Shown one piece after another: positions 5,691-27,200 of a stretch of DNA of 64,000 nucleotides; the first letter of the stretch is position 1, and each line of letters begins with the position of its first letter. The DNA is from Lotus japonicus. Its lineage: Eukaryota > Streptophyta > Magnoliopsida > Fabales > Fabaceae. The stretch lies in the NCBI RefSeq assembly GCF_012489685.1, contig NC_080046.1, positions 21,141,304 to 21,205,303 on the forward strand. Reading direction: 5' to 3'. Position numbers and translations under genes: made by a program. The notes beneath the pieces are model-generated. The model was not told the origin of the DNA. It was given only the letters and a program-made list of their open reading frames with translations, and searched no databases.

Positions 5691-5829
5691 CCTCAATCCT
5701 CATATTCCAAACTCCAATCAATAATAATAGCGAGGACCAAGTTTTCTTCTCTGGTTTCTGCTGCAGCCACCGCTTTGAGAATTCAATCAATTCCAGTTCT
5801 CACCTCAACCAACACACACAGCTTCACAA

Positions 5830-7192: not shown

Positions 7193-7304
7193 TGTAAGAT
7201 CAAGTTTTGATCGAGTAGTACAACTCTATGTTTTGATGATTACAAGTTAACATTTTAGTATGAACAATTATGGTACTCTAACGTGTTTTTCTGAGTATGC
7301 TATT

Positions 7305-7997
7305 CAGGGACGGACCCACTCACACAATGGTGGGGGCAAATGACCCCACGTGGTTTACGGACTTTCTTTTAATACTAGTATGTATTTTTAAATTCTCTAC
7401 AAAGTTGCCCCCATAACTTTTCCATTATATTGAAAATGCCCCCAAGTTACATATCAAACCACTCTAACGGCCCAGTGCTCTAACAAGAAACTGTCCAGCT
7501 AAACCCAACCCATTTTCTTCTCTATCTTTTTTAATACATCATTAATATCACATTCTTCTTCTTAAACATCTTTATTTTTTTACGATAAAGTGATCAACAT
7601 ATCTATTAAATACAAATTCCTTTTGAAAAAATAAATATAGATTTTTAAGACTTTCTTGCTGTGCTATGAATTTTATCCCTTTTTTTTTTTCTCGGTACCA
7701 TGCATGTATGTGTTCTGTGACCTTTTCTTTTCCTGTTACTTTTATTTACTTCCATTTCACCTTTTTAAAATATAGTCACATTTTTATTAAATATAATCAC
7801 ATTACAATTAATTCATTTTATATTTTTATTCACTTATATATATACACACATTTATATTAAAATAAATGTATTCAGTATTTTATTATAACGTAAATCTTTT
7901 AAATATTTTTCCATGAGTAACCCAGGGAAGGATCCATGTAGGGCTTATAGCGCGCGGAAATTGCCCCACAAATTGTTTTAATTTTTTTTAATTAATG

Positions 7998-8043
<46 letters not shown>

Positions 8044-8223
8044 TACACTAAACATTTTATATTTTATTACTTCTTATTTTTAAGTATATGTGTTTTGCTC
8101 TCACAAAATTAAGTGGGCTGGCATAATAGTTCAACACCGCATCATAAATAAGTGGTTGAGTTTCGATTCATAAATATATTGTGAAACTGCCCCCACGACT
8201 CAAAAGTTCTAGATCCGTCACTG
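7305..8223. mobile_element. Non-autonomous hAT-type element, copy A (inside the 5' LTR)
   Basis: Termini are CAGGGACGGA on the left and TCCGTCACTG on the right, giving an imperfect terminal inverted repeat of CAG(G/T)GACGGA. It is flanked by 8-bp duplications ATGCTATT (7297-7304) and GTGCTATT (8224-8231); the uninterrupted 3' LTR reads GTGCTATT, so the left copy has one substitution. An 8-bp TSD and CAGGG-type ends fit the hAT superfamily. No transposase is encoded. A run of TA dinucleotides at about 7998-8039 explains most of its extra length over copy B (919 versus 880 bp). Confidence 0.88.
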
Positions 8224-8809
8224 GTGCTATTTACAGGCTCTGACCTCATTTCAATCTCACACAAATCAGAAGCACTGTGCATAAAGAGTGACCCAAGCAA
8301 CGCTTTCGCAACATCTATGTTCACTCTGAACAGTAGAAATGCTTCAGAAGATCTGAAGCCACACAAAACTCTGATATGGACTCAGTCACTTGAAGTTCTG
8401 AAGATCCAGACGTTCTGACAACCAAGAAACTCTGAAGGTTCAGATGTTCTGATGGTGTAGAAGACTCTGAAGATCCAGAAGCTGAAAAGTGAAAACTCGG
8501 ATGTCCAGAAGCAAGATGACTCTGAAGACCATGTACTTCCCTCTGAGTTCAGAATCAGAAGATACAACGGTCAGAGGATCTGTGCTTCCCTCTGACTCTG
8601 ATCAACTGGCTTCACAAGTTCCAACATGAAGCATTCCCCTGATCAGAAGTCTACTAGGTTTAAAGATCAAGTCACTATCCAAGTACAAAAGCAAATGTAC
8701 TATCCTGACGACCTACCTAACATTCTCAGCCATAGCAGAAGCTGGAATTTCCAGAACTGCCCTCCAACGGTAGCATTTCCATGCAGCGTTCAAACCCTAA
8801 TCCTTGGAG

Positions 8810-8817
8810 TATAAATA
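8810..8817 (+). promoter_or_regulatory. TATA box in the 5' LTR of the outer copia element
   Basis: TATAAATA in the middle of the LTR, followed within about 100 bp by transcribed-type sequence. The identical box is at 24570-24577 in the 3' LTR. It probably drives the genomic transcript. Confidence 0.7.
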
Positions 8818-9329
8818 GAGGCTGAAGATTGAAAGATGCGGTTGGAAGAATCTCACACGCGCAAGCTACATTCAAAAAACCTTCTAAGCATTCTTTCATC
8901 TGAATTCATTATGTTTACTATTAGCTTTTCAGAAGCAAACTCTTTGTAAACATTCTTTCTTAAACAAGTTGTTTAGTTACCTTTAGGAGATCAAGTTTGA
9001 TCGGATCCTAGAGAAGACTAAGAGAGTGAATCTTAGTGTGAGCTAAGTCAGTGTAATTGTTAGTCACTTGTAGGTTTCAAGTGCAGTTGTAACATTTACC
9101 TGATTAGTGGATTGCCTTCATTCTAAGAAGGAAGAAATCACCTTAACGGGTGGACTGGATTAGCTTGAGGGATTTATCAAGTGAACCAGGATAAAAATCC
9201 TTGTGTGCTTTTCTATCTCTTATCTTAAGCACTTTGTTCTCGAAAGATTTGTTAAAATCTTTAAGGTGGAAGTTTTATTCTGAAAACGTTATTCAAACCC
9301 CCCTTTCTACCGTTTTTCATACCTTCAAT

Positions 9330-9341
9330 TGGTATCAGAGC
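9330..9341 (+). other. Primer-binding site (initiator Met-tRNA type), outer element
   Basis: TGGTATCAGAGC follows the 5' LTR after two bases. This is the standard minus-strand primer site of plant copia elements, complementary to the 3' end of initiator tRNA-Met. Confidence 0.9.
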
Positions 9342-9399
9342 GCAAGTTCTGATTACCACAGATAACAGTGTTCAGTGATCCGGGCCGGTGTGAAAAACA

Positions 9400-11060
9400 A
9401 TGGCTACCACCAGTGAAACGCAAAAAGATGGTTACAATGAAAGCCTCACATGTTCGACGGTCAAAGGTTCGAATATTGGAAAGATAGACTTGAAAGTTTC
9501 TTTCTGGGTTTTGATGCAGATCTCTGGGATATTATTGTGGATGGCTATGAGCGTCCAGTTGATGAAGAAGGCAAGAAGATCCCAAGGTCAGAGATGACTG
9601 CAGATCAAAAGAAGCTTTACTCACAACATCACAAAGCTAGAACAATTCTTCTAAGTGCTATCTCTTATGAAGAGTACCAGAAGATTACAGATCATGAGTA
9701 TGCAAAAGACATCTTTGAATCTCTGAAGATGTCTCATGAAGGAAACAAGAAAGTCAAAGAATCAAAGGCATTGTCTTTGATCCAAAAGTATGAATCCTTC
9801 ATCATGGAGCCAAACGAGTCCATTGAAGAAATGTTTTCCAGATTTCAGTTGCTTGTAGCTGGAATACGACCTCTCAACAAGAGCTACACAACAAAAGATC
9901 ATGTCATAAGGGTCATCAGAAGTCTTCCTGAAAGCTGGATGGCCTTGGTGACTTCAATAGAGCTTACAAGAGATGTTGAGCGTATGAGTTTAGAAGAACT
10001 CATCAGCATACTGAAGTGTCATGAGCTGAAGCGCTCAGAGATGCAAGATCTGAGGAAGAAGTCAATAGCCTTAAAATCCAAATCTGAGAAGGCTAAAACA
10101 GAAAAGTCAAAAGCTCTTCAAGCTGAAGCAGAAGAATCTGAAGAAGCATTAGAAGATTCTGATGAAGATGAGCTAACTCTGATCTCTAAAAGACTCAACC
10201 GTATCTGGAAGCACAGGCAGAGCAAATACAAAGGCTCTGGAAAGGCCAAAGGAAAGTCTGAATCCTCAGGTCAGAAGAAGTCCTCAATTAAGGAAGTCAC
10301 ATGCTTTGAGTGCAAAGAATCAGGGCACTACAAAAGTGACTGTCCAAAATTGAAGAAGGACAAGAGGCCAAAGAAGCACTTCAAGACCAAGAAAAGTCTG
10401 ATGGTGACTTTTGATGAATCAGAGTCAGAGGATGTTGACTCTGATGGAGAAGTCCAAGGACTCATGGCCATTGTCAAAGACAAAGGAGCAGAGTCAAAGG
10501 ATGTTGTTGACTCTGACTCAGAATCAGAAGGAGATCCTAACTCAGACGTTGAAAATGAGGTATTCGCTTCTTTCTCAACCTCTGAGCTGAAACATGCTTT
10601 GTCTGATATCATGGATAAGTATAACTCTTTATTGTCTAAGCATAAGAAGCTGAAAAAGAACTCATCTGCTGTTTCTAAGACTCCTTATGAACATGAGAAA
10701 ATCATTTCTGATTTGAAAAATGATAACCATGCTTTAGTGAATACTAACTCTGTGCTTAAGAATCAAATTGCTAAGTTAGAAGAAGTTATTGCCTGCGATG
10801 CATCTGATAGTAAGCATGAATCTAAGTATGAAAAATCTTTTCAAAGATTCCTGGCTAAAAGCGTAGATAGAAGCTTAATGGCTTCAATGGTCTATGGCGT
10901 AAGCAGAAATGGAATGCATGGCATTGGCTATTCTAAACCAATTAGAAATGAGCCTTCTATGCCTAAATATCATGCAAAAATTCCTTTACATTACCATGTT
11001 GAGAAACCCAAGGTGATCAGAACCTCTGGGGTAACTAACAAGAGAGGACCCAGAAAGTAG
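9400..11060 (+). pseudogene. Outer copia gag (capsid/nucleocapsid), frameshifted near its start
   Basis: The natural start is probably the ATG at 9400 (MATTSE...), the position equivalent to the start of the inner gag. That frame is lost by about one missing base near 9440; the main gag frame is then open from 9450 to 11060 (536 codons). It contains the UBN2/copia-type gag fold region (about 9460-10060), a highly charged Glu/Lys stretch, and a CCHC zinc knuckle 'CFECKESGHYKSDC' at about 10303-10344. A Ser/Asp/Glu-rich region and a C-terminal domain follow. The frame ends in a TAG where the inner element has a tryptophan codon. Relative to the inner gag it lacks roughly 35 residues near 10965. 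Gag would form the virus-like particle that packages element RNA. Confidence 0.88.
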
Positions 11061-11082
11061 GTACCTAAGGATAAGATTATCT

Positions 11083-14000
11083 ATGTTGCAGATATCCTTG
11101 ATAGCTCCACTGAAACACCAATCATGGTATCTGGACAGTGGATGCTCGCGTCACATGACGGGAGAAAGGCGTATGTTCCAAGAGCTAAAACTTAAGCCTG
11201 GAGGCGAAGTTGGCTTTGGTGGCAACGAAAAGGGTAAAATTGTTGGTACTGGTACTATTTGTGTAGATAGTAGTCCATGCATTGACAATGTTTTATTGGT
11301 AGACGGCTTAACTCATAACTTATTGTCTATAAGTCAATTAGCTGACAAGGGTTATGATGTTATCTTTAATCAAAAGTCCTGCCGGGCTGTAAGTCAGATC
11401 GATGGCTCTGTTCTGTTTAACAGCAAGAGGAAGAACAACATTTATAAGATCAGATTATCTGAGTTGGAGGCTCAGAATGTGAAGTGTCTTCTGTCTGTTA
11501 ATGAAGAGCAATGGGTATGGCATAGACGGTTAGGGCATGCCAGTATGAGAAAGATTTCTCAGCTGAGCAAGCTAAAACTTGTCAAGGGCTTGCCCACTCT
11601 GAAGTTCTCTTCAGACGCTCTTTGTGAAGCATGTCAGAAAGGCAAATTCACAAAAGTCCCTTTCAAGGCAAAGAATGTTGTCTCAACCTCAAGGCCGTTG
11701 AAACTTCTGCATATCGACCTATTTGGACCAGTGAAAACTGATTCTATAGGTGGCAAGAGATATGAGATGGTCATTGTTGACGACTATAGCCGCTGGACAT
11801 GGGTAAAATTTCTAACCCGCAAGGATGAGTCTCATGCTGTGTTCTCTACCTTCATAGCCCAAGTGCAAAACGAGAAGGCTTGTAGGATTGTGCGTGTCAG
11901 AAGTGACCATGGTGGAGAGTTTGAGAATGACAAGTTTGAGAGTCTGTTTGATTCCTATGGAATTGCACATGATTTCTCTTGTCACAGAACTCCTCAACAA
12001 AATGGTGTTGTTGAGAGGAAGAACAGAACTCTTCAGGAGATTGTTAGAACAATGCTCCAAGAAACTGGCATGGCTAAGCACTTTTGGGCAGAGGCAGTAA
12101 ACACAGCGTGTTACATTCAGAACAGAATCTCTGTGAGACCAATTCTGAATAAGACTCCCTATGAATTGTGGAAGAATATAAAACCCAACATTTCTTACTT
12201 TCATCCTTTTGGTTGTGTTTGTTATGTTCTTAATATTAAGGATAGATTGCATAAATTTGATGCTAAGTCTTCTAAATGTCTATTACTTGGTTACTCTGAG
12301 AGATCTAAAGGTTTTAGATTCTATAATACTGATGCTAAAACAATTGAAGAATCTATTCATGTTAGATTTGACGATAAGCTTGACTCTGACCAGTCAAACC
12401 TAGTTGAGAAATTTGCAGATTTAAGTATAAGTGTTTCTGACAAAGGCAAAGCTCTAGAGGAAGCTGAGCCAGAAGAAGCTGGTCCCTCCGATTCACAAAC
12501 TCAGAAGAAGAGCAGAATCACTGCAGCTCATCCTAAGGAATTGATTCTGGGCAACAAAGACGAACCAGTCAGAACCAGATCAGCCTTCAGACCCTCTGAA
12601 GAGACCCTGCTTAGTCTGAAAGGATTGGTGTCCTTAATTGAACCCAAGTCAATTGATGAAGCTCTTCAGGACAAGGACTGGATTCTGGCCATGGAAGAAG
12701 AATTGAATTAATTTTCAAAGAATGATGTTTGGAGCCTAGTGAAGAAGCCTCAAAGTGTCCATGTAATTGGAACAAAATGGGTGTTCAGAAACAAGTTGAA
12801 TGAGAAAGGAGATATAGTCAGAAACAAGGCAAGGCTAGTTGCTCAAGGCTACAGCCAGCAGGAAGGAATAGACTACACAGAAACATTTGCTCCAGTAGCA
12901 AGACTAGAAGCAATCAGACTGTTGATCTCCTTCTCAGTGAATCACAACATAATTCTACATCAGATGGATGTTAAGAGTGTCTTCCTAAATGGATACATAT
13001 CAGAGGAAGTCTACGTTCATCAACCCCCAGGTTTTGAGGATGAAAAGAACCCAGACCATGTTTTCAAATTGAAGAAATCACTCTATGGTCTGAAACAAGC
13101 TCCCAGAGCATGGTATGAGAGACTCAGCTCATTCCTTCTGGAGAATGAGTTTGTAAGGGGTAAAGTAGATACAACTCTCTTTTGCAAAACTTACAAAGAT
13201 GATATCTTAATTGTGCAAATTTATGTTGATGATATTATATTTGGTTCTGCTAATCAATCTCTATGTAAAGAATTTTCTGAGATGATGCGGGCTGAATTTG
13301 AGATGAGTATGATGGGAGAACTCAAGTACTTTCTGGGAATACAAGTTGATCAAGCACCGGAAGGAACATATATCCATCAGAGCAAGTACACTAAAGAAAT
13401 TCTGAAGAAGTTCAATATGCCGGATTCTACAGTCGCCAAGACTCCAATGCATCCTACATGCATTTTGGAGAAAGAAGATGCAAGTGGTAAAGTTTGTCAG
13501 AAGCTCTATCGTGGTATGATAGGATCACTTCTATACTTAACTGCATCTAGGCCAGATATATTGTTTAGTGTTCATTTATGTGCTCGTTTCCAATCAGATC
13601 CAAGGGAAACCCACTTAACTGCTGTTAAGAGGATCCTAAGGTATCTGAAAGGTACCACTAACCTTGGCTTGATGTATAAGAAAACATCAGAGTATAAGCT
13701 TTCAGGTTATTGTGATGCTGATTATGCTGGAGATAGAACAGAGAGAAAAAGCACTTCTGGAAATTGTCAATTTCTGGGAAGCAACTTAGTCTCATGGGCA
13801 CGCAAGAGGCAATCAATCATTGCACTATCTACTGCAGAGGCAGAATATATCTCAGCAGCAATATGCAGCACTCAGATGCTCTGGATGAAATATCAGCTGG
13901 AGGATTATCAAATCCTTGAGAGCAATATCCCAATCTATTGTGATAACACTGCTGCAATCTCATTGAGTAAGAATCCTATCTTACATTCAAGGGCAAAGCA

Positions 14001-14169
14001 CATTGAGGTAAAGTATCACTTTATTAGAGATTATGTACAGAAGGGCGTACTTCTTCTGAAGTTTTTTGATACTAACCATCAATGGGCAGATATCTTTACA
14101 AAGCCCTTAGCAGAGGATAGATTTAATTTCATTCTGAAAAATCTGAATATGGACTTTTGTCCAGCATGA
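11083..14169 (+). pseudogene. Outer copia pol: protease, integrase, reverse transcriptase, RNase H
   Basis: One frame runs from about 11083 to the TGA at 14167-14169, broken by a single in-frame TAA at 12709-12711. In order it shows the aspartic protease motif 'DSGCSRHMTG' (from about 11134), the integrase zinc region 'HRRLGHASM...CEAC' (about 11520-11640), and an integrase core with 'HIDLFGP', 'SDHGGEFEN' and 'QQNGVVERKN' carrying the D,D,E residues. Reverse transcriptase follows with 'YVDDIIFGS' (about 13222) and RNase H with 'CDADYAGD' and 'TAEAEY'. This order defines Ty1/copia. Gag lies in another frame and ends just upstream, so the gag-pol junction is also out of register. The stop falls between integrase and RT and would prevent RT synthesis. 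Confidence 0.93.
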
Positions 14170-14175
14170 AGATGG

Positions 14176-15454
14176 TGTAAGATCAAGATTTGGTCATGTG
14201 GTACAACTCTATGTTTTGATGATAACAAGTATTTATTTGTGGATGAACAACTATGATACTCTAATGTTTGTCTTGAGTGTTTTGACAAACAGGTTCTGAT
14301 TCTGACACCAGAAGATATATTCGTCAGAAGTTCTGAAGATCAGAAGATCAGAGGATCAGAAGATCTGAAGAACAGAAGTTCTGAAGATCAGAAGATCTGA
14401 AGAACAGAAGATCAGAGGATCAGAAGCTCTGAAGATCAGAAGATCTGAAGATCAGAGGATCTGAAGATCAGAGGATCTGAGGATCAGAGGATCAGAAGAT
14501 CAGAGGATCAGAAGATCTGAGGATCAGAAGATCTGAAGACCAGAAGCTCTGAGGGACCAGAGGCTCTGAAGGTTCAGAAGCTCTGAAGGTCCAGAAGCAG
14601 AAGTTACGAAGGTCAGAGGATCCAAGCATCCCTCTGACTCTGATCACCAAGCTTCACAAGTTCCAACACGAAGCATAACTCTGATCAGAAGTAAATGGTT
14701 AAAGGCAAATGTCTCTATCGAGAAGTACAAGAGCAGTGTACTATTCTGAAATGCCTACCTACCAAGGTTCAGCCACAGCAGGTTCTGGAAGTTCCAGAAA
14801 TGCCCTCCAACGGTCATATTCTCTCAACAGAAATATCCTTTGCACCTTGGACTATAAAAGGCTGAAGAAAAGAAGAAAGACTAAGAGAGAGAAAACAAAG
14901 AGCTGCAATACAAGAAAAGATTCAAGCCTCTACTTTCTTCATCTATTCTTATTTGGTTTACACTCAGCTTATTTAGAAGCAAACCTTTGTAAACACCAAC
15001 CTCAAACAGTTGTTTGATTTTCCTTAAGGGACCGGGTAGGTCAGTATCCTTAAGAAGACTAAGAGAGTGAATCTTAGTGGTGATTCCTTTAGGAGATCAA
15101 GGTTGATCGGATCCTAGAGAAGACTAAGAGAGTGAATCTTAGTGATAGCTAAGTCAGTGTATTGTTAGTCACTTGTAGGTTTCAAGTGCAGTTGTAACAA
15201 TTATCTGATTAGTGGATTGCCTTCATTCTAAGAAGGAAGAAATCACCTTAACGGGTGGACTGGATTAGCTTGAGGGATTTATCAAGTGAACCAGGATAAA
15301 ATACTTGTGTGCTTTTCTCTTCTCTCTATCTTTATCCGCTGCACCATCTATCTTAGAGAAACCGAAAAGATTTACCTTAAATCTTAAGGGGAAAGTTTTT
15401 ATATTGAAAACGCTATTCAACCCCCCCCCCTTCTAGTCGTTTTTCACACCTTCA
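14176..15454 (+). repeat. 5' LTR of inner element, with a GATCAGAAGATCTGAAG repeat array
   Basis: A 1279-bp LTR apparently identical to 17938-19216. Between about 14310 and 14610 it carries a dense array of degenerate units of 10-18 bp built from 'AGAAGATCTGA' and 'AGAGGATCAGA'. A TATAAAAG box is at 14853-14860. Near 15020-15150 the phrase 'AGAAGACTAAGAGAGTGAAT' occurs twice, a small internal duplication relative to the outer LTR. Confidence 0.93.
14853..14860 (+). promoter_or_regulatory. TATA box in the inner element 5' LTR
   Basis: TATAAAAG, at the same relative place as the TATA box of the outer LTR. The copy in the 3' LTR is at 18615-18622. Confidence 0.65.
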
Positions 15455-15456
15455 TT

Positions 15457-15468
15457 TGGTATCAGAGC
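15457..15468 (+). other. Primer-binding site, inner element
   Basis: TGGTATCAGAGC two bases after the 5' LTR, identical to that of the outer element, so both use the initiator Met-tRNA primer. Confidence 0.9.
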
Positions 15469-15528
15469 GCAAGTTCTGATTACCACACTTAACAGTGTTC
15501 AGTAGATCCGGGCCAGTGTGAAAAACTC

Positions 15529-17118
15529 ATGGATTCCACCACTACTACAAGCAAATATCAATACAGTGCAAGACCACCTATCTTTGATGGTCAGAGATTT
15601 GATTTCTGGAAAGACAGAATCAAAAGCTTCTTTCTTGGCTTTGATCCTGATCTTTGGGATTTTGTTGTTGATGGCTACACCCCTCCTGTTGATGTACATG
15701 GTGTAAAGATCCCAAGGAAGAAGATGAGTGAAGATCAAAAGAAGGAGTTCAGAGATCATCACAGATCAAGAGCTATTCTGCAAAGTGCCATTTCATATGA
15801 AGAATATGAGAAAATTACTGATCGTGATTCCGCTAAGTGTATCCTTGATTCCTTAAAGATGACACATGAAGGAAACAAGAAGGTGAAAGAATCAAAGGCG
15901 CTGTCCTTGATCCAGAAATATGAATCCTTCATCATGGAACCTAACGAATCCATTGAGGATATGTTTTCCAGATTTCAGTCGCTCGTAGCTGGAATACGAC
16001 CTCTCAACAAGAGCTACACAACTAAAGATCATGTCATAAGGGTCATCAGATGTCTTCCTGAAAGCTGGATGCCCTTGGTGACTTCAATAGAGCTTACAAG
16101 AGATGTTGAGCATATGAGTTTAGAAGAACTCATCAGCATACTGAAATGCCATGAGCTGAAGCGCTCTGAGAAGGCTAAATCTGAGAAGTCAAAAGCTCTC
16201 CAAGCAGAAGCAGAAGAATCTGAAGAAGCCTCTGAAGATTCTGATGAAGATGAGCTGACTCTGATATCCAGAAAGCTCAACTGCATCTGGAAGCACAGGC
16301 AGAGCAAATACAAATGTTCATCAAAGGACGAAAAGTCAAAGAAGCATTTCAAACCAAAGAAAAGTCTGATGGTAACTTTTGATGAATCAGAATCAGAGGA
16401 TGTTAACTCTGATGGTGAAGTCCAAGGACTCATGGCTATTGTCAAAGACAAAGGAGCAGAGTCAAAGGAAGCTGTTGACTCTGACTCAGAATCAGAAGGA
16501 GATCCAGACTCTGACGATGAAAATGAGGTATTTGATTCTTTCTCAACTTCTGAACTTAAAGATGCTTTGTCTGAAATTATGGATAAATATAACTCTCTCT
16601 TGACTAAGCATAAAAGGTTGAAAAAGAATTTCTCTGCTGCCTCTGAAACTTCTGTTGAACATGAGAAAATTATTTCTGATTTGAAAAATGATAATCATGC
16701 TTTGATCAATTCTAACTCTGTGCTTAAGAATCAAATTGCTAAGTTAGAAGAAGTTATTGCCTGCGATGCCTCTGATAGTAAGCATGAATCTAAGTATGAA
16801 AAATCTTTTCAAAAATTCCTGGCTAAAAGCGTAGATAGAAGCTTGATGGCTTCATTGATCTATGGCGTGAGCAGAAATGGAATGCGTGGCATTGGGTATT
16901 CTAAACCAATTAGAAATGAGCCCTCTGTGCCTAAAGCTAAATCTTTGTATGAATGCTTTGTTCCCTCTGGTACCATATTGCCTGACCCTGTACCTGCTGA
17001 AGTTGCTAAAAACCCTCGTAAAAAGGGATCTTTCTCTATGACTAAATATCATGCAAATATTCCTTTAAAATATCATGTTGAGACACCCAAGGTGATCAGA
17101 ACCTTCTGGGCTAACTAA
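15529..17118 (+). CDS. Inner element Gag, lacking the zinc knuckle
   Basis: A continuous 529-codon ORF starting at the first ATG after the primer site. Residues 1 to about 230 match the outer Gag closely (UBN2/copia-type region with 'FDGQRFDFWKDR' near the N-terminus). The segment that carries the CCHC knuckle in the outer element is missing: the reading goes from 'WKHRQSKYK' almost directly to 'KKHFKPKKSLMVTFDE'. A further short piece before it ('SEMQDLRKKS' in the outer protein) is also gone. The Asp/Glu/Ser-rich region and coiled C-terminal domain are kept, with about 35 residues that the outer copy has lost. Near 17108 one extra base relative to the outer copy ends the frame slightly early. 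It could supply capsid function; RNA binding through the knuckle is not possible. Confidence 0.85.
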   Translation: MDSTTTTSKYQYSARPPIFDGQRFDFWKDRIKSFFLGFDPDLWDFVVDGYTPPVDVHGVKIPRKKMSEDQKKEFRDHHRSRAILQSAISYEEYEKITDRDSAKCILDSLKMTHEGNKKVKESKALSLIQKYESFIMEPNESIEDMFSRFQSLVAGIRPLNKSYTTKDHVIRVIRCLPESWMPLVTSIELTRDVEHMSLEELISILKCHELKRSEKAKSEKSKALQAEAEESEEASEDSDEDELTLISRKLNCIWKHRQSKYKCSSKDEKSKKHFKPKKSLMVTFDESESEDVNSDGEVQGLMAIVKDKGAESKEAVDSDSESEGDPDSDDENEVFDSFSTSELKDALSEIMDKYNSLLTKHKRLKKNFSAASETSVEHEKIISDLKNDNHALINSNSVLKNQIAKLEEVIACDASDSKHESKYEKSFQKFLAKSVDRSLMASLIYGVSRNGMRGIGYSKPIRNEPSVPKAKSLYECFVPSGTILPDPVPAEVAKNPRKKGSFSMTKYHANIPLKYHVETPKVIRTFWAN

Positions 17119-17937
17119 CAAGAAAGGACCCAGAAAGTGGGTACCTAGGGATAAGATTATATATGTTGCAGATATCTTCAATAGGTCCATCGAAACTCCA
17201 ACCATGGAACCTGGACAGTGGATGCAAGCAACACATGACGGGAGAAAGGCATATGTCCCAAGATCCAAAACTTGAACCTGAAGGTGAAGTTGATCTTGGA
17301 GGCATCAGTAGAGTAAGATTTGGTCAAGTCAAAGCTAGCTGAAAAAGCTTGTAGAGATGAGCATGACCGGTTCAGAAAGTAACAAAGACTCAGAACTTGA
17401 CGAACCAGAAGCAACAACATCAGAAGATGCTTCTACAACTTCTGACTTGCGTCATCAGAAGAAGAGTAGGCTCCTAGCTTCTCATTCTGAAGTATCTAAA
17501 GATGAAATTTTGTCCAGAACGGAGATGTCACCAGAACCACACTTCTGCTCTCATCAGAAGATATGCTAATCAGAAGCCAAGTATCCCTTGGTATTCCTTC
17601 TGAGGGGGAGTATTTCGTCTTATGCTCTTACTATTTTTTTTCCCACCTTCATTCTTTTTGCTTATGACAAAAAGGGGGAGAACTTATAGTATCTTGACAA
17701 CTCCTATATTATTTAGCTCAGAATCTAGATATTACTAACGTTGATATTAAGTATTAGATTCAGGGGGAGCTTAGCTCAGAATCAAGCACGAGTCTTGGAT
17801 TCAGAAGGAGCAAGATAAACTATACACATCAGGATAAGTTTTAACTCTGATACCTTATACTCTGAGTGTATTCAGTTTATTTGTTTAGAGTTGTTCATCA
17901 AAATACATGGTTTTGTCATCATCAAAAAGGGGGAGAT
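17119..17937 (+). pseudogene. Inner element pol scraps and polypurine tracts
   Basis: Up to about 17310 the sequence still aligns with the start of the outer pol, including the codons around the protease DSG motif. It then jumps to sequence resembling the acidic integrase-RT linker (about 17357-17569, with the shared 'QKKSR'), and then directly to the 3' non-coding region. The integrase core, RT, RNase H and envelope-like ORF are absent. AAAAAGGGGGAG tracts occur near 17669 and, next to the 3' LTR, at about 17924; a GAGGGGGAG tract is near 17601. Multiple tracts of this kind are typical of Sireviruses. Confidence 0.8.
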
Positions 17938-19216
17938 TGTAAGATCAAGATTTGGTCATGTGGTACAACTCTATGTTTTGATGATAACAAGTATTTATTT
18001 GTGGATGAACAACTATGATACTCTAATGTTTGTCTTGAGTGTTTTGACAAACAGGTTCTGATTCTGACACCAGAAGATATATTCGTCAGAAGTTCTGAAG
18101 ATCAGAAGATCAGAGGATCAGAAGATCTGAAGAACAGAAGTTCTGAAGATCAGAAGATCTGAAGAACAGAAGATCAGAGGATCAGAAGCTCTGAAGATCA
18201 GAAGATCTGAAGATCAGAGGATCTGAAGATCAGAGGATCTGAGGATCAGAGGATCAGAAGATCAGAGGATCAGAAGATCTGAGGATCAGAAGATCTGAAG
18301 ACCAGAAGCTCTGAGGGACCAGAGGCTCTGAAGGTTCAGAAGCTCTGAAGGTCCAGAAGCAGAAGTTACGAAGGTCAGAGGATCCAAGCATCCCTCTGAC
18401 TCTGATCACCAAGCTTCACAAGTTCCAACACGAAGCATAACTCTGATCAGAAGTAAATGGTTAAAGGCAAATGTCTCTATCGAGAAGTACAAGAGCAGTG
18501 TACTATTCTGAAATGCCTACCTACCAAGGTTCAGCCACAGCAGGTTCTGGAAGTTCCAGAAATGCCCTCCAACGGTCATATTCTCTCAACAGAAATATCC
18601 TTTGCACCTTGGACTATAAAAGGCTGAAGAAAAGAAGAAAGACTAAGAGAGAGAAAACAAAGAGCTGCAATACAAGAAAAGATTCAAGCCTCTACTTTCT
18701 TCATCTATTCTTATTTGGTTTACACTCAGCTTATTTAGAAGCAAACCTTTGTAAACACCAACCTCAAACAGTTGTTTGATTTTCCTTAAGGGACCGGGTA
18801 GGTCAGTATCCTTAAGAAGACTAAGAGAGTGAATCTTAGTGGTGATTCCTTTAGGAGATCAAGGTTGATCGGATCCTAGAGAAGACTAAGAGAGTGAATC
18901 TTAGTGATAGCTAAGTCAGTGTATTGTTAGTCACTTGTAGGTTTCAAGTGCAGTTGTAACAATTATCTGATTAGTGGATTGCCTTCATTCTAAGAAGGAA
19001 GAAATCACCTTAACGGGTGGACTGGATTAGCTTGAGGGATTTATCAAGTGAACCAGGATAAAATACTTGTGTGCTTTTCTCTTCTCTCTATCTTTATCCG
19101 CTGCACCATCTATCTTAGAGAAACCGAAAAGATTTACCTTAAATCTTAAGGGGAAAGTTTTTATATTGAAAACGCTATTCAACCCCCCCCCCTTCTAGTC
19201 GTTTTTCACACCTTCA
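17938..19216 (+). repeat. 3' LTR of inner element
   Basis: 1279 bp, TGTAAGATC to CCTTCA, apparently identical to the 5' LTR including its GATC-rich array and the C-run near 19182. It is directly preceded by the polypurine tract AAAAAGGGGGAGAT. Confidence 0.93.
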
Positions 19217-19221
19217 GATGG

Positions 19222-19646
19222 ATCAGAACCTCTGACTATGATGCTTCTTTATCAGAAGATGTCTAGTCCAGAAGGTAACTCTATCAGAGTTTATGTACCC
19301 ATTGGTGCTAACTCTAAAGCTGAGATAGTAAACGTGTGTCAGTATCTCTGATACATAGTTCCTTGTGCCCGTGCTGACAATCTGTTGTAATGAGTGTTGA
19401 TGTGCTTATCTCCTGCGTGTGATAGGTGTATTTACTGTTACTATCATGTCTTTAATTTCTAACCGTTGATTTTAAATTGCTTTTTGATCAACAACGGTTA
19501 TTTGTCAAAACCCACTATACACACACGTTCTCCTACACTTACGGTTTTACCTTCTCTCTCTTCAGTTTTTCAAAAACTTATCCCCACGATCTCTCTCTCT
19601 CTATTCATCCTTCTCCTTCAACCCAAAACCTTCAACCGACGTCACG
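19222..19646 (+). other. Outer element spacer before the envelope-like ORF
   Basis: Outer-element sequence resumes after the inner insertion. No ORF is evident. A pyrimidine-rich stretch with CTCTTCAG near 19560 could be a splice acceptor or the 5' leader of a subgenomic message for the downstream ORF, but this is inference. Confidence 0.4.
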
Positions 19647-22529
19647 ATGGTGAGACAAACCAGAAATGAAGCTGCAGGTGCAACCAGGTTCCCTCATATG
19701 GTAGTAGGCCAAGCTACAGGTCAATTGGGTCCTGAAGCTCCAAATCAAGGTCAGGCTTCAGAGAAGATGATTCCAATTGCATAACAGGGTTGTGCCGTTC
19801 ACTGCGTTTATGCTCCGGAAGAACTCCAAGTGCTTGCTGAATGGAGATTCGACCTGGATAATATAGCTGCAAATGGGTATGATCTTCAACCTGAAGTTCA
19901 AGTTCAGGGATGGGAAGAGTATTTCAACAGGCTTAGAGGTCCAATTTATGACAAATTGGTCAAGGAATTCTGGAAACACGCGGACTGTGATGATACACAA
20001 GTTGTCTCCTACATTGCTGGAAGGAGGATAATCATCACTGAGAAGTCCATTGTGAATTTGCTGGGTGCACACACTGGAACTGGGTATAGATTCCAACTGA
20101 CAGAATCGAAGTTGAAACCCAGAACAAAGGAAGAAACCAACAAGGCTCTTTACACCAACTACAAACCTGGCAAGAGTGACTACAAAGTGATGGATCTTCA
20201 TCCCAAGCTAAGGATCTGGCACAAGATTCTGCTTCACTGCATCAACCAGAGGCCAAAGGGAAGCTCTCCTGATTACATCAACTTCTGCCAGAAGGCAATG
20301 CTGTTCTTCATTCAGGATAAGAGGAAGATCTGCCTTCCTTTCTTCTTGTTCTCTTACCTGAAAGAATGCATCAGGAAGTCCAGAACCACTGCCTCCATCA
20401 AGTCTGCCATCAAGTACATCCCCTTTGGGAGACTGCTTTCAGATCTCTTCATTGAGAGTAAATTCGTAGAAGATCTGATCAAGGCAGGATGCACAGAGGA
20501 TCTGTCTACAATTGTCAGTGATGTCTTCACATCCACATCTTTGAAGAAGATGGGATTGGTCAAGAAGAAGATAGCCCCTGCTCATGAAGATACTTCTGAT
20601 GAAGTAAGACAAAGAAGGGTGCCTCTGAATGATTTCCCTCTGTGGACCCAAGCAGACAACCCAGAAGCTATTTTGTGCTACATTGATGATCTGAAGCAAC
20701 AAGGGTTTGAGATTGATGTAGACGAGTTCTTCAGGCGATTGCCACCAGCTCCAGAGTTTGACTCTCCTCCCAAGAGAAAAGTTCAGAGAAAAATGGTCTT
20801 GGAGGAATCTTCTGAGGAGTCTGATGTTCCTCTGAAGAAGAAGAAGAAGGCTGACAAGCCTAAGAGGAAGCACGATGAAACCACCAAGCCCGATGATGGT
20901 GATGATGGTGATAATGATGATGGTCCTTCCCCTCCAAAGAAGAAGAAGAAGCAAGTCAGAATTGTGGAGAAGTCTACCCGTGTGGAACCTGCTGCTGCAG
21001 TCATCAGAATGGAGACTTCTGCCAGAGTGACTCGGTCTGCCGTGCGTTCATCAAGTAAGTCTGCTGTCACTGAATCTGATGATGATTTAAATTCAATTGA
21101 TGCACTCCCCATCTCTACACTTCTTAACCGCACAGCCACCCAACTCACTCCAATCCCAGAGTCTCAGCCAGCTGCCCAAACCACATCTCCACCTAATTCC
21201 CCAAGGTCTTCATTTTTCCAACCTTCCCAAGAAGAAGCACCTCTGTGGAATATGCTTCAGACTCCACGTCCCTCTGAACCAACCTCTCCAATTACCATCC
21301 AATACAACCCATTAACCTCTGAACCCATCATTCCTGAACAACCAGAACTTGAACAACCAGAACCTGAACCCAGAACGTCTGATCACTCTGTCCCCAGAGC
21401 ATCAGAACGTCCTGATCATAGAACTGCTGATACAGATTCTTCCACTCCCTATACTTCTGTATCCTTTCCTACCAACGTTGCTGACTCCTCACCTTCCAAC
21501 AACTCTGAGTCACTTCGTAAATTTATGGACGTCAGGAAAGAAAAAGTGTCTGCCATTCCAGAGTACTACCTCACAGTACCAAGCCCTAGGAGATACCATG
21601 GACCTAGAACAGAACGTCTAGTTGACCCAGATGATCCTATCCAGGCTGACCCCTTGCATGAAGCAGGCCCTTTAGCCCAACAAGTCCAACCTGACAAAGT
21701 TCATCAAGAGCCTATTCAACCAGAACCAGAAAACTCTGTGTCTAACCACTCTTCGGTTAGATCACCACATCCTCAGGTTGAAACCTCTGCACCAAACCTT
21801 GGAGCCTCTGAACCAAATGTCCAAACTTTTGATATTGGCTCTCCTCAAGGTGCCTCTGAGGCAAACAGCAGCAACCACCCAACCTCTCCTGAAACCAACC
21901 TCTCCATTGTTCCCTACACATATCTCAGGCCAACCTCTCTCTCTGAGTGCATCAGTGTTTTTAATCATGAAGCTTCACTGATGTTACGCAATGTGCAAGG
22001 TCACACTGACCTGAGTGAGAACGCTGACTCTGTTGCTGAAGAATGGAATCGTCTGAGTACTTGGTTAGTTGCTCAGGTTCCTGTTATGATGAGTCATCTC
22101 ACTGCATAAAGGGATCAGAGGATTGAGGCTGCTAGGCAGCGGTTTACAAGAAGAGTGGCTCTGCATGAACAACAACAAAGAACTAAGTTACTTGAAGCTG
22201 TTGAAGAGGCCAGAAGAAAGAAAGAGCAAGCAGAAGAAGCTGCACGTCAAGCGGTTGTACAAGCTGAAAATGCAAGATTAGAAGCTGAGAGACTTGAAGC
22301 TGAAGCTGAAGCTCTTAGATGTCAAGCTCTTGCACCAGTGGTCTTCACTCCTGCTGCTTCTGATTCCACTCAAGCTCATCAATTTGCTCAGAATGTTCCT
22401 TCTAGCTCTACACAGCCAAGTTCTTCCAGACTTGATATCATGGAACAACGTCTCAATTCTCATGAGACTCTGCTGATGGACATGAAGCAAATTCTTCAAG
22501 AACTCCTGCGTCGCTCTGATAAACCTTAG
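19647..22529 (+). pseudogene. Sirevirus envelope-like / plant transposon protein ORF, with two in-frame stops
   Basis: One frame runs from an ATG at 19647 to a TAG at 22527-22529 (about 960 codons), interrupted by TAA at 19782-19784 and 22107-22109. Its N-terminal third (about 19830-20700) resembles the 'putative plant transposon protein' domain found in the third ORF of SIRE1-like elements. Two lysine-rich clusters (about 20836-20870 and 20935-20955), each resembling a nuclear localisation signal, flank an acidic stretch. A long Pro/Ser/Glu-rich region follows, then a coiled coil rich in Ala, Glu and Arg (about 22155-22320). I see no transmembrane segment or signal peptide, so 'envelope-like' reflects position and family rather than visible membrane features. 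Confidence 0.75.
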
Positions 22530-22715
22530 TTTTAGGATTTCTTTCGTTTTTCTTAACTTAATTTCTCTTTATTTCTATTTTCTTTGCATTACTTGCTATG
22601 TTTTGCTTACTAGTAGTTTATCATTGCATATATATAAATGACCTTGTGTTTGCAAAATCTTTTTCTTTATTCATAATAATTTATGTTTATTACATCATAC
22701 ATTTTGTCCCTAAAT

Positions 22716-23108
22716 CTAGAATGGAGGATACTTCCTCATTCTTCTGCATTCTTGGCGCTGCTCTACCCTCTCTTTCTCCAGACGATCCAATGAATACTGG
22801 ATGTTGTTGAGTTTGTTGTTCAGCTCATCTCTCTCCAGACTATCTTCTCTCGTCTTGAGTCTCTTTTCCATAGCTTCCTTCTCTTCCAGCAAATTCAGCT
22901 CAAGCTGGCTGAGTTCCTGAATTTCCTCAACGAAGGCAAGGAATTCTTTCAAATCCTTCTCCAGCTCTGGACAAAGGTCTTCGTCAAGCAGTGTCTTCGT
23001 CAGCTCGTGTATCGTTCGTGTACCATCAGGGTGCCGGATGTTAAGGAGCATGTCTTCCTCGAAGGCTTTCCTTCTGAGCTCTTCCAGTGCGACCATGTAT
23101 GAAGCCAT
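22716..23108 (-). CDS. Antisense coiled-coil ORF in the outer copia element
   Basis: A 130-codon ORF on the strand opposite to gag-pol, lying between the envelope-like ORF and the 3' LTR, where no sense ORF overlaps it. The start codon is in good context (AAGAAATGGCT). The first 45 residues are mixed; from about residue 48 onward the protein is strongly heptad-like and rich in Glu, Leu, Lys and Arg ('ELNLLEEKEAMEKRLK', 'LDRLEKERVEQRQE'), a predicted coiled coil. A TATA box lies about 50 bp upstream on the same strand. Antisense ORFs at this position are known in some plant LTR elements, with unknown function. The ORF is intact although every sense ORF of the element is broken. I do not recognise a named family. 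Confidence 0.6.
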   Translation of the reverse strand: MASYMVALEELRRKAFEEDMLLNIRHPDGTRTIHELTKTLLDEDLCPELEKDLKEFLAFVEEIQELSQLELNLLEEKEAMEKRLKTREDSLERDELNNKLNNIQYSLDRLEKERVEQRQECRRMRKYPPF

Positions 23109-23158
23109 TTCTTTTTATGGTATTGATCGAGTTGTGAAGCTTACCCTCTTCTAAATCG

Positions 23159-23169
23159 CTTTATATAAG
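23159..23169 (-). promoter_or_regulatory. TATA box for the antisense ORF
   Basis: On the minus strand the sequence reads CTTATATAAAG, ending about 50 bases before the antisense ATG at 23108. This is the spacing expected for a plant core promoter with a short 5' leader. It faces away from the element's own LTR promoter. Confidence 0.5.
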
Positions 23170-23199
23170 CTTCATTCTCTCCTTGGAAGTTATTGCTCC

Positions 23200-23879
23200 T
23201 ACAGTTTCTCGAGGTTAAGTCCTTGGTAACTGAAGCTTCTCTTTACTCCCGTGGCCGGTGGTAAACATTCTTCTTTTGCATTAACTCCCTTCCTTAATAC
23301 GCGTAACTCTCATTCCTACAACGTTTATTTCTCAATCTTTTCACTCAGACCTTCTCTGAGGGGGAGTACCTTGTACTTCAAGCTGAGTTTTTCACACCCC
23401 ATACTTTTTGCTTATGACAAAAAGGGGGAGTACACCTAGTTTTTGATGTGTAAGTGTGATTTATTTTGAAGAATTTAAGAGTTCCAATTTTATGACCATA
23501 GATGTGTCACTGGGCAAATACAAGGAATACATTTCACTTCCTCTGAAGTGATTCTATTTGACTCTGATACCACTTATTGTTGACTCTGAATACTTATGCG
23601 CTCTGATTATTTTATTTCATCTATGTCATGCGCCTTCACTCTGAAATCTTACATTATTTAGCTCAGAATCTAGACATTTCTAATGTTTTCATTAAGTCTT
23701 AGATTCAGGGAGAGCTATGCTTAGAATCAAGCTGTGACTTGGATTCAGAATGAGTAAAATAAACTATTCACATCAGGATAAGTCTTATTCTATATATCTA
23801 ACTCTGAGTGAATTCAGTTTATTGTTTAAGAATTGTTCATCAAAATACTTGGTTTTGTCATCATCAAAAAGGGGGAGAT
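23200..23879 (+). other. 3' non-coding region of outer element with repeated polypurine tracts
   Basis: GAGGGGGAG near 23358, AAAAAGGGGGAG near 23409 and AAAAAGGGGGAGAT at about 23865-23879 repeat the Sirevirus polypurine signature. The last one abuts the 3' LTR and is the probable plus-strand primer. The rest of the segment is non-coding and aligns with the corresponding part of the inner element (17600-17937). Confidence 0.7.
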
Positions 23880-25088
23880 TATAAGATCAAGTTTTGATCG
23901 AGTAGTACAACTCTATGTTTTGATGATTACAAGTTAACATTTTAGTATGAACAATTATGGTACTCTAACGTGTTTTTCTGAGTGTGCTATTTACAGGCTC
24001 TGACCTCATTTCAATCTCACACAAATCAGAAGCGCTGTGCATAAAGAGTGACCCAAGCAACGCTTTCGCAACATCTATGTTCACTCTGAACAGTAGAAAT
24101 GCTTCAGAAGATCTGAAGCCACACAAAGCTCTGATATGGACTCAGTCACTTGAAGTTCTGAAGATCCAGACGTTCTGACAACCAAGAAACTCTGAAGGTT
24201 CAGATGTTCTGATGGTGTAGAAGACTCTGAAGATCCAGAAGCTGAAAAGTGAAAACTCTGATGTCCAGAAGCAAGATGACTCTGAAGACCATGTACTTCC
24301 CTCTGAGTTCAGAATCAGAAGATACAACGGTCAGAGGATCTGTGCTTCCCTCTGACTCTGATCAACTGGCTTCACAAGTTCCAACATGAAGCATTCCCCT
24401 GATCAGAAGTCTACTAGGTTTAAAGGTCAAGTCACTATCCAAGTACAAAAGCAAATGTACTATCCTGACGACCTACCTAACATTCTCAGCCATAGCAGAA
24501 GCTGGAATTTCTAGAACTGCCCTCCAACGGTAGCATTTCCATGCAGCGTTCAAACCCTAATCCTTGGAGTATAAATAGAGGCTAAAAATTGAAAGATGCG
24601 GTTGGAAGAATCTCACACGCGCAAGCTATATTCAAAAAACCTTCTAAGCATTCTTTCATCTGAATTCATTGTGTTTACTATTAGCTTTTCAGAAGCAAAC
24701 TCTTTGTAAACATTCTTTCTTAAACAAGTTGTTTAGTTACCTTTAGGAGATCAAGTTTGATCGGATCCTAGAGAAGACTAAGAGAGTGAATCTTAGTGTG
24801 AGCTAAGTCAGTGTAATTGTTAGTCACTTGTAGGTTTCAAGTGCAGTTGTAACATTTACCTGATTAGTGGATTGCCTTCATTCTAAGAAGGAAGAAATCA
24901 CCTTAACGGGTGGACTGGATTAGCTTGAGGGATTTATCAAGTGAACCAGGATAAAAATCCTTGTGTGCTTTTCTATCTCTTATCTTAAGCACTTTGTTCT
25001 CGAAAGATTTGTTAAAATCTTTAAGGTGGAAGTTTTATTCTGAAAACGTTATTCAAACCCCCCCTTTCTACCGTTTTTCATACCTTCA
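23880..25088 (+). repeat. 3' LTR of outer copia element
   Basis: 1209 bp. Its first two bases are TA instead of TG, a point change at the terminus. About ten substitutions distinguish it from the 5' LTR, most of them A/G or C/T transitions. The TATA box is at 24570-24577. Confidence 0.93.
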
Positions 25089-25173
25089 GTTGGGGGTGGA
25101 GACGGTGGTGGTGGAAAAGATGGTGGCAATGAAGGCGGAGGAGGTGGTGGGTGGGGGCGGAGATGGTTGTGGC

Positions 25174-26053
25174 CAGTGACGGATCCAGAACTTTTGAGTC
25201 GTGGGGGCAGTTTCACAATATATTTATGAATCGAAACTCAACCACTTATTTATGATGCGGTGTTGAACTATTACGCCAGCCCACTTAATTTTGTGAGAGC
25301 AAAACACAATAAGAAGTAATAAAATATAAAATGTTTAGTGTAAACAATATATATATATAACATTAATTAAAAAAAATTAAAACAATTTGTGGGGCAATTT
25401 CCGCGCGCTATAAGCCCTACATGGATCCGTCCCTGGGTTACTCATGGAAAAATATTTAAAAGATTTACGTTATAATAAAATACTGAATACATTTATTTTA
25501 ATATAAATGTGTGTATATATATAAGTGAATAAAAATATAAAATGAATTAATTGTAATGTGATTATATTTAATAAAAATGTGACTATATTTTAAAAAGGTG
25601 AAATGGAAGTAAATAAAAGTAACAGGAAAAGAAAAGGTCACAGAACACATACATGCATGGTACCGAGAAAAAAAAAAAGGGATAAAATTCATAGCACAGC
25701 AAGAAAGTCTTAAAAATCTATATTTATTTTTTCAAAAGGAATTTGTATTTAATAGATATGTTGATCACTTTATCGTAAAAAAATAAAGATGTTTAAGAAG
25801 AAGAATGTGATATTAATGATGTATCAAAAAAGATAGAGAAGAAAATGGGTTGGGCTTAGTTGGACAGTTTCTTGTTAGAGCACTGGGCCGTTAGAGTGGT
25901 TTGATATGTAACTTGGGGGCATTTTCAATATAATGGAAAAGTTATGGGGGCAACTTTGTAGAGAATTTAAAAATACATACTAGTATTAAAAGAAAGTCCG
26001 TAAACCACGTGGGGTCATTTGCCCCCACCATTGTGTGAGTGGGTCCGTCCCTG
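25174..26053. mobile_element. Non-autonomous hAT-type element, copy B
   Basis: Ends CAGTGACGGA and TCCGTCCCTG, in inverted orientation relative to copy A at 7305-8223. A perfect 8-bp TSD GTTGTGGC flanks it (25166-25173 and 26054-26061). The body is nearly identical to copy A apart from a shorter TA run and a few substitutions. It has no transposase. It sits in the GGT-rich island just outside the outer copia element. Confidence 0.9.
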
Positions 26054-27160
26054 GTTGTGGCGGTGGTAGCGGCGATGGTTGTGACGACGACAACGATGAA
26101 TTTGGTGGCGGCAGCAATGACGAAAATGAAAATGAAAACAAAAAGTCAAAATAAACATATATTCTAAATTTTAAAAATTTGAAAATGAAAAATATTTTCA
26201 GAAAATGAAAACAGGAAATGTTTTCCCAACCCAGACCCTTAATTTTTTATTTTTAGTCTCTTAGACCTTTGCAATAAAATAAGTTGAATTTTGAGTTATA
26301 GTGGTCCAAATGGGATAAATATTAATGGGTAAATTGTCAATTTGGTCCTTGAAAGTGACACTCGCCGATAAGTGGTTCCTAGATGATCTTTGTCCCTGAA
26401 AGTGATAGGAAACTTGGAAAGATAAGCTCAAAGTTGTAAACTTGGAAATTAACCACAAAAGTATAAACATTTACATAATTGATTGATGAGGTAGTTATGT
26501 GCAAACTTAAATGGAGAATTGGAATCCCCGAACTTACATCAAGAACTATAAGTTCCATAAATAATCAGAACCTAATGCAAAATTGATTCACGAACCTTCT
26601 AATTTCAGAGATCAAGAATAGTAGAAAACCAAATTCGTAGAAAGCATTTTTTTCTCCCCCAAACGATGGTGGAACACATGTGAACGACAAGGTTAAGAAA
26701 CGAAATTACTTTGTTTGGGAAGCTTTATACGGGGCGGATCTGTCAGTTGAGGAAGAGAATTGAGGTACGGAGAGGTCCAAGACAAGCGCCTCAACGTCAT
26801 CGCTTCAGAATATGCATCTTCTAGTCGCCCATGTTATTGTCTCTGAATGAATGATCATAAACTCTTTTTTTATAAGCTATTTAGAAAATAAATTATATAT
26901 AAGCATAAACTCTTTTTCATAAGCTATTCAGAGTAACTTATGAAAATAAGTTCAAAACAACTTATAATAGATCATAAATTGTGTGCATAAACTTTCCTAA
27001 ACACTTACTGAAACGCTTATGCTATAAAATAAGTTCAAATCTCTAACCGTCATTGTCTTTGGAAAGGACAAGCTGCCTAGCTAAATAAATATGTATTTGC
27101 TTATTGAATTTGAGTAAAAATGTATGGTGATAAGAACGCAATGAATGTGAGGTCCAAATT
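26054..27160. other. Intergenic region between the transposon cluster and PSBY copy 2
   Basis: It begins with the end of the GGT-rich island (to about 26105). About 26320-26480 contains 'TTTGGTCCTTGAAAGTG' repeat-type phrases of a decayed transposon. From about 26860 to 27040 inverted 'ATAAGCTATT...AGTAACTTATG' motifs suggest a small MITE. No gene is visible. Confidence 0.4.
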
Positions 27161-27200
27161 ACACCATTCGGATAAGAGAAGAATCTAAAGATGAGAGTCT
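27155..27200 (+). promoter_or_regulatory. Conserved I-box promoter block of PSBY copy 2
   Basis: GATAAG at 27171-27176 sits in the same block as in copy 1, with similar flanks ('ACCATTCGGATAAGAG', then 'AATCTAAAGATGAGAG'), about 180 bp upstream of the ATG. The 5' leader with 'TTTCTGCTGCAGC' is also shared. The role in light regulation is inferred from the motif. Confidence 0.4.

What the first reader, a model, noticed from the sequence alone, without database searches (positions are those of the whole stretch)
14176..19216. A recently moved Sirevirus derivative that has lost pol and the Gag zinc knuckle
The inner element has clean termini, a TSD (GATGG), a primer site and 1279-bp LTRs in which I see no difference, so it inserted very recently. 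Yet it has only a long gag ORF, and that gag lacks the CCHC knuckle present in its relative. Pol is reduced to two scraps by at least two separate deletions. It must have been mobilised in trans. Retention of a 529-codon gag without pol or knuckle suggests either that Gag capsid function still matters in cis or that the deletions are recent.
Basis: partly seen in the sequence, partly recalled or inferred. Interest (0 to 1): 0.75.

Follow-up and report, generated by a model that had tools for sequence, protein, structure and literature searches.

The report
Gag-only retrotransposon family in a legume
A plant jumping gene that has lost its copying enzymes and part of its coat protein is one of several hundred similar copies that appear to spread by borrowing machinery from complete relatives, while its surviving coat-protein gene still looks selected for use.

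Summary
In detail: 1279-bp LTRs with 0 differences, TSD GATGG, gag without CCHC, no pol. The deletions are therefore shared and predate amplification of a TR-GAG (gag-only) family. Gag is kept: 39 of 39 other fetched gag-only copies have gag open for at least 500 codons, and non-synonymous excess falls with allele frequency (omega about 0.88 singletons, 0.43 shared, 0.29 fixed). This copy is atypical: one extra base cuts Gag from 581 to 529 codons. It is unique in the genome and sits at the end of a tract with alleles of a young autonomous family, like a template-switch scar. Recombinants L009 (pol-bearing, knuckle-less gag, hybrid LTR) and L042 (gag-only, knuckle-bearing gag) also tie the family to that partner. 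New: a knuckle-less, helper-dependent Sirevirus family whose Gag appears selected in cis.

The parts
14171..14175 (.). 5' target-site duplication GATGG
14176..15454 (+). 5' LTR, 1279 bp, TG...CA, TATA box at 14853, poly-C run at 15421
15457..15468 (+). primer binding site TGGTATCAGAGC (initiator Met tRNA; identification recalled)
15529..17118 (+). gag ORF, 529 codons, PF14223, no CCHC; truncated by a private 1-bp insertion
15748..16501 (+). mosaic tract 1: identical to L009 over the 741 bases searched; 11 other places 98% alike over the whole tract and one over part; rare in the 38 fetched copies
16164..16165 (+). 16-codon in-frame deletion point relative to knuckle-bearing gag
16317..16336 (+). 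zinc-knuckle deletion junction (38 codons absent, in frame); pattern found 439 times in the genome
17041..17102 (+). mosaic tract 2: alleles of the autonomous family at 11 of 11 diagnostic sites
17102..17106 (+). extra base / frameshift at the 3' breakpoint of tract 2; scar pattern found once in the genome
17119..17317 (+). continuation of gag in relatives (to 17275) overlapping the start of pol, then the pol deletion
17482..17527 (+). remnant of the end of RNase H (80% to outer 14129-14174)
17603..17935 (+). linker with four Sirevirus PPT octamers AGGGGGAG at 17603, 17673, 17762, 17928
17938..19216 (+). 3' LTR, identical to the 5' LTR
19217..19221 (.). 3' target-site duplication GATGG
7193..25088 (+). 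outer Sirevirus into which the element inserted, just after its pol stop; gag with CCHC 9450-11060, pol 11083-14169; TSD GTTGG

Best explanation
The element is a recent member of a large gag-only (TR-GAG type) Sirevirus family. The family lost pol and, by in-frame deletion, the Gag zinc knuckle before it amplified. Its RNA is packaged into particles together with RNA and Pol of autonomous Sireviruses, at least those of one very young family ('AUTO', L009 pol type), and is reverse-transcribed and integrated by their enzymes. Its own knuckle-less Gag still contributes, because copies encoding damaged Gag leave fewer descendants. During copying, template switching between the two RNAs makes mosaics. 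This copy carries a short AUTO tract, and the switch added one base that truncated its Gag. Shown: shared junctions, distinct TSDs, open gags, the frequency-dependent N:S pattern, mosaics, hybrid LTRs. Inferred: co-packaging, the identity of the helper, template switching, and cis action of Gag.
For: Amplified after the deletions: 439 exact knuckle-deletion junctions, 0 for the reversed control; 39 other places match the whole gag query (40 scored of 3909 candidates); the tail matches at 39 other places (40 scored of 1917); 18 of 19 gag-only loci have perfect, all different TSDs (17 by scan; L025 with its start set by eye); LTR substitutions 0-8 per copy, 0 in 7 of 19 including this one. Gag kept: 19 of 19 gag-only loci found by gag are open for 579-581 codons (a set biased to good matches). 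In the sample found by tail, 20 of 20 are open for at least 500 codons and 18 of 20 reach the native end. Derived alleles in 38 copies: singletons 24 syn:64 non, shared 57:75 (p 2.6e-6 against neutral; Fisher against singletons p 0.022), fixed 47:41. Trans partner: L009 has AUTO pol and U3 but gag-only R/U5 and gag; the near-identical element on contig C60 has a 3' LTR with the same hybrid switch, 1299 of 1300. L042 is the converse, AUTO gag with CCHC on a gag-only tail. The window copy has AUTO alleles at 11 of 11 sites in 17041-17102, and 6 of 6 sites after the extra base are family-type.
Against: No RNA, particle or transposition data. Singletons alone are near neutral (omega 0.88, p 0.33), so the selection signal rests on shared alleles, some of which could have come by recombination from autonomous families not sampled here. 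The 38 copies are not independent; many are close relatives. Pairwise pN/pS rises to 0.65-0.82 in codons 401-581, and single pairs range from 0 to 1.04. Two stop singletons exist, both near the C-terminus (L055, L011). AUTO is a supported partner, not proven to be the only helper or the helper. For L009, the visible first 350 bp of its own 3' LTR, next to an assembly gap, is only 97% like its 5' LTR with 8 gaps.
Confidence: 0.8

Rival explanations
1. Pure passenger: the gag-only RNA uses Gag and Pol entirely from autonomous elements. Its own gag is not selected and only looks conserved because the copies are young and because recombination keeps importing good gag sequence.
For: Recombination with the AUTO family is seen; LTR ages are low; singletons are near neutral; the window copy itself has a truncated Gag and still inserted.
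Against: Alleles absent from AUTO, OUTER and L009 still show omega 0.43 when shared; 39 of 39 fetched gag-only copies have gag open for at least 500 codons; the pol deletion begins about 40 bp after the native gag stop. The truncated copy may have been copied in particles made from other copies' Gag, so it says nothing either way.
Confidence: 0.27
2. The knuckle-less Gag is an interfering or restricting protein: it co-assembles with helper Gag and diverts particles to gag-only RNA, similar in logic to truncated Gag forms that limit Ty1 (recalled).
For: 38 of 39 fetched gag-only copies have the knuckle-less gag, L042 being the exception, and it is maintained; the outer element and the three AUTO copies sampled keep the knuckle.
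Against: No functional data; L009, a pol-bearing element with a knuckle-less gag, is present as an insertion.
Confidence: 0.2
3. The mosaics arose by gene conversion between integrated DNA copies, not by co-packaging and template switching.
For: Gene conversion among repeats occurs (recalled); tract 2 is short (about 60-80 bp).
Against: The L009/C60 recombinant is hybrid at a 5' LTR and at a 3' LTR with the same switch point downstream of the TATA box, which one DNA conversion would not give; the window scar is unique and carries an out-of-register base. If L009 and C60 are separate insertions, this still holds for their lineage.
Confidence: 0.12
4. A dying single copy: an autonomous element that lost pol recently at this locus.
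For: None after the genome search.
Against: 439 shared junctions and 19 distinct TSDs including this one.
Confidence: 0.01

Closest known systems
TR-GAG elements (terminal-repeat retrotransposons with GAG domain); Arabidopsis AT5TE33540 (Kirov et al. 2021, PMC8704663, passages seen; the founding Chaparro 2015 paper is recalled, not seen)
   Same: Two LTRs around a single gag ORF; non-autonomous; mobile; a related autonomous element proposed as helper.
   Different: Here the Gag has lost its CCHC knuckle in 38 of 39 fetched gag-only copies, hundreds of places share the junction, and recombinants with a partner family and a frequency-dependent selection signal on gag are seen. Whether published TR-GAGs keep the knuckle was not checked.
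Autonomous Sireviruses (Bousios et al. 2010, PMC2829016, passages seen)
   Same: PPT octamer AGGGGGAG followed by AT/TG, four PPT copies near the 3' LTR, imperfect inverted repeat at the PPT, poly-C near the LTR end.
   Different: No pol, no long ORF after gag, no CGG-CCG boxes found in the LTR.
vN/vS decline in maize Sireviruses (Dazeniere et al. 2022, PMC9073684, abstract and Discussion read)
   Same: Same kind of test and same direction of result.
   Different: Theirs are elements with intact gag/pol; here gag alone is tested while pol must come from elsewhere.
Soybean autonomous-nonautonomous LTR swapping (Du et al. 2010; title seen in a reference list, paper not held) and Onsen recombinants (PMC5668417, passages seen)
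   Same: Recombination in R during the first strand transfer (Onsen); exchange between autonomous and non-autonomous partners (soybean, title only).
   Different: Here the exchange is between a gag-only family and an autonomous family and moves a knuckle-less gag.

Membership tests
TR-GAG | two LTRs, PBS and PPT around the coding part | tested here: met
TR-GAG | single ORF, encoding Gag, no pol domains | tested here: met
TR-GAG | multicopy and mobilised | tested here: met
   (past insertions; present activity not testable)
Sirevirus | terminal PPT AGGGGGAG, AT/TG attachment site | tested here: met
   against passages of PMC2829016
Sirevirus | multiple identical PPTs near the 3' LTR, inverted repeat at the PPT, poly-C signal | tested here: met
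   four octamers, ten C, inverted repeat imperfect
Sirevirus | CGG-CCG repeated-motif boxes in the LTR | tested here: not met
   none in the inner LTR nor in the outer 5' LTR part searched, by a simple pattern; membership is therefore claimed only as a derivative, by junction motifs and gag homology
Sirevirus | RT phylogeny | not tested
   the element has no RT; the outer RT was only matched to RVT_2
Sirevirus Gag | CCHC zinc knuckle | tested here: not met
   the three AUTO copies sampled (L030-L032) and the outer element have it

The most novel reading that the evidence does not exclude
Gag alone, even without its zinc knuckle, confers cis preference in an LTR retrotransposon. In this family Pol must come in trans, so the fall in non-synonymous alleles with frequency would come from Gag acting on the RNA that encodes it. 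That would separate Gag from Pol in the unsolved problem of how LTR retrotransposons avoid being parasitised.
Probability: 0.45. Interest if true: 0.8.

Novelty: new variant of a known kind. Interest (0 to 1): 0.62.

Why it matters
How LTR retrotransposons keep their proteins for their own RNA is an open problem (stated in the Discussion of PMC9073684). A family of several hundred places with gag but no pol, in what appears to be a model legume, lets the Gag part be measured separately. It also shows a knuckle-less Gag persisting in a successful lineage, and exchange in both directions between a gag-only family and an autonomous one, including one exchange whose scar truncated the gag of the window copy.

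Tried and rejected
Rejected: a single-locus recent deletion; segmental duplication of one copy (TSDs differ); L009 as donor of tract 2 (at 17058 the window matches AUTO, not L009); an L009-only origin of tract 1 (11 other places are 98% alike over the whole tract, and the three whose tails were fetched have the gag-only tail). Lotus gene models P0003 and P0013, which also lack CCHC, align with gaps elsewhere and look like annotation artefacts (a judgement). Not achieved: a genome count of the pol-deletion junction (tool busy); RT phylogeny; search for an autonomous element with the gag-only U3.

Bias notes: the 20 loci are the 20 best of 39 other gag hits, so they favour intact gags. The 20 are 20 of the 40 rows. 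L042 and L009 were left out of the 38-copy counts as recombinants. The scan for junctions beside pol used only the first 100 listed junctions (C1 below 70.9 Mb): 0 of 5 AUTO-type and 0 of 12 outer-type pol copies had one within 6 kb upstream.

Full report
Observation. The inner element at 14171-19221 is as described: identical 1279-bp LTRs, TSD GATGG, PBS, PPT, a gag ORF without CCHC and no pol. It sits just after the pol stop of an outer Sirevirus (7193-25088, TSD GTTGG) whose gag has a zinc knuckle. With 0 of 1279 LTR substitutions and a rate of 1.3e-8 per site per year (recalled), the insertion is younger than roughly 90,000 years at 95% (hand calculation).

Source. The window lies in a 553.7-Mb assembly of 65 contigs, in which contigs C1-C6 are chromosome-sized. 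Two contig lengths come within about 4.2 kb of lengths listed for Lotus japonicus proteins (67,907,570 against 67,910,847; 95,624,312 against 95,628,465). Lotus japonicus is therefore inferred, not named by the tool.

An amplified family. Searching with gag gave 40 scored places of 3909 candidates. The 39 others match the whole query, 38 over 1589 bases and one over 1588, which implies the same knuckle deletion. Of 20 of these fetched with flanks, 19 are gag-only with the same LTR type, and one, L009, has pol. The knuckle deletion is the same in all 20, with base variants around it. The pol-deletion junction is shared by 17 of the 19; L011 and L016 carry a variant, and L057 and L058, tails of two further copies, keep another short pol piece. 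TSDs are perfect in 18 of the 19 and all different, 17 by scan and L025 with its start set by eye; L010 is a tandem array without one. LTR substitutions per copy range from 0 to 8 (19 copies including the window). A search with the non-coding tail gave 40 scored places of 1917 candidates. The knuckle junction pattern occurs 439 times, reversed control 0. On the listed part of C1, 0 of 5 AUTO-type and 0 of 12 outer-type pol copies lie next to such a junction, while 10 of 11 tail places do.

Gag is kept. Gag is 581 codons in 18 of 19 gag-only copies found by gag and 579 in L011. The pol deletion starts about 40 bp after this native stop, so much of the apparent 5' pol scrap is gag. In the tail-based sample, chosen without regard to gag, 20 of 20 gags are open for at least 500 codons: 15 are 585-592, L036 and L040 are 552 and 556, L037 and L055 are cut to 517 and 500 near the C-terminus, and L042 is open through the fetched piece but is a different gag. 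18 of 20 reach the native end, L039 running two codons past it. Pooled pairwise dN/dS among 18 copies is 0.31, lowest in codons 1-300. Because recombination can import synonymous differences, I then counted only derived alleles absent from AUTO, OUTER and L009 in 38 copies: singletons 24 syn to 64 non plus 2 stops (omega 0.88, not different from neutral), counts 2-3 21:31, counts 4-12 12:17, above 12 24:27, all shared 57:75 (omega 0.43, p 2.6e-6; p 1e-4 with a stronger transition bias). Fixed differences against AUTO and OUTER are 47:41 (omega 0.29), but these include time before pol was lost. Shared against singletons, Fisher p = 0.022. This is the pattern that Dazeniere et al. 2022 (PMC9073684; abstract and Discussion read) describe in intact Sireviruses and attribute to cis-targeting.

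The knuckle. The family lacks 38 codons around CCHC and a further 16 upstream, both in frame. The segment stays basic (net charge +11 against +16). The three sampled AUTO copies have a 636-codon gag with CCHC.

The autonomous partner. L009's pol matches 40 scored places (of 2847 candidates, itself included) at about 100% identity, so this family is very young. L009 has AUTO pol and U3 but R/U5 and gag of gag-only type. The switch lies between LTR positions 821 and 832, roughly 100 nt after the expected transcription start (start inferred from the TATA box). Its 3' LTR runs into a gap of 100 N; the 350 bp visible before the gap is 97% like its 5' LTR with 8 gaps. Contig C60 carries an identically scoring pol and a 3' LTR matching L009's 5' LTR at 1299 of 1300 positions, the hybrid switch included. 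C60's 3' flank begins TTATC, the five bases before L009's 5' LTR. Against simple identity, the C60 gag region is 99.5% like L009's with 11 gaps and is not open, a gap of 100 N lies in its 5' LTR, and the flanks beyond the gaps do not match between C3 and C60 on either side. They are either two unmerged halves of one insertion, which I favour from the TSD, or two insertions of one recombinant lineage. In both cases a hybrid LTR is seen at a 5' end and at a 3' end, which is what minus-strand strong-stop transfer between two packaged RNAs gives; recombination in R at the first switch is reported for Onsen (PMC5668417, passages). L042 is the converse recombinant: AUTO gag with CCHC, 98.2% over 1810 bp, switching to family sequence between gag positions 1632 and 1648.

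The window copy as a mosaic. Tract 1 (15748-16501) is identical to L009 over the 741 bases searched and rare in the sample, but 11 further places are 98% alike over the whole tract and one over part, and the three whose tails were fetched are gag-only, so it is a subfamily haplotype. Tract 2 (17041-17102) carries AUTO alleles at 11 of 11 diagnostic sites, shared by 0-1 of 38 copies at ten of them and by 5 of 38 at one; six of six sites after it are family-type. The extra base that truncates Gag lies at that boundary, is consistent with a one-base out-of-register switch in a CTT stretch (inference), and its scar pattern is found once in the genome. The truncation is thus probably a by-product of the last copying cycle and says nothing about whether the truncated protein works.

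Comparison. Gag-only plant elements are known as TR-GAG, and one was seen to move in Arabidopsis (PMC8704663, passages); sunflower has expressed ones (PMC9784723, passages). LTR swapping between autonomous and non-autonomous partners is known from soybean (title in a reference list). In eight searches of the held papers no listed title or abstract beginning was about a knuckle-less TR-GAG family or a selection test on gag in a pol-less family; most subscription papers are not held, and I looked only into the papers named. What appears new is the combination.

Limits. All evidence is from one assembly. Copies are related, the fetched set is a fraction of 439, and no expression data were available.

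Noticed in passing
7305-8223 and 25173-26053: A 0.9-kb insert with hAT-like ends (likeness recalled) and an 8-bp flanking repeat with one mismatch splits the 5' LTR of the outer Sirevirus; a second, inverted copy (95%) lies just outside its 3' LTR.
   Followed up: partly
11058-11060: The outer gag has an in-frame TAG where the 19 gag-only copies, L009 and the three AUTO copies read TGG and continue to the native gag stop.
   Followed up: partly
19830-22109: 759-codon ORF in the linker of the outer element, weak match to PF20167 below its cut-off; L009 has a related region, about 79% alike.
   Followed up: no
5616-6528 and 27129-28054: Direct repeats 86.5% alike flank the whole nest, possibly the LTRs of an older outermost element.
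   Followed up: no
50347-50722 and 59489-59864: Exact 376-bp direct repeat 9.1 kb apart, possibly LTRs of another young element.
   Followed up: no
L010; G000 C1:43061310-43069425: Tandem LTR-gag-LTR repeats of the gag-only family in L010, and three tail hits at even spacing on C1, as from unequal crossing-over.
   Followed up: no
L033 around the 100-N run; contig C60 (L029, L034, L035): The assembly breaks inside the 3' LTR of L009 and inside the 5' LTR of its near-identical copy on C60; they may be one unmerged locus.
   Followed up: partly
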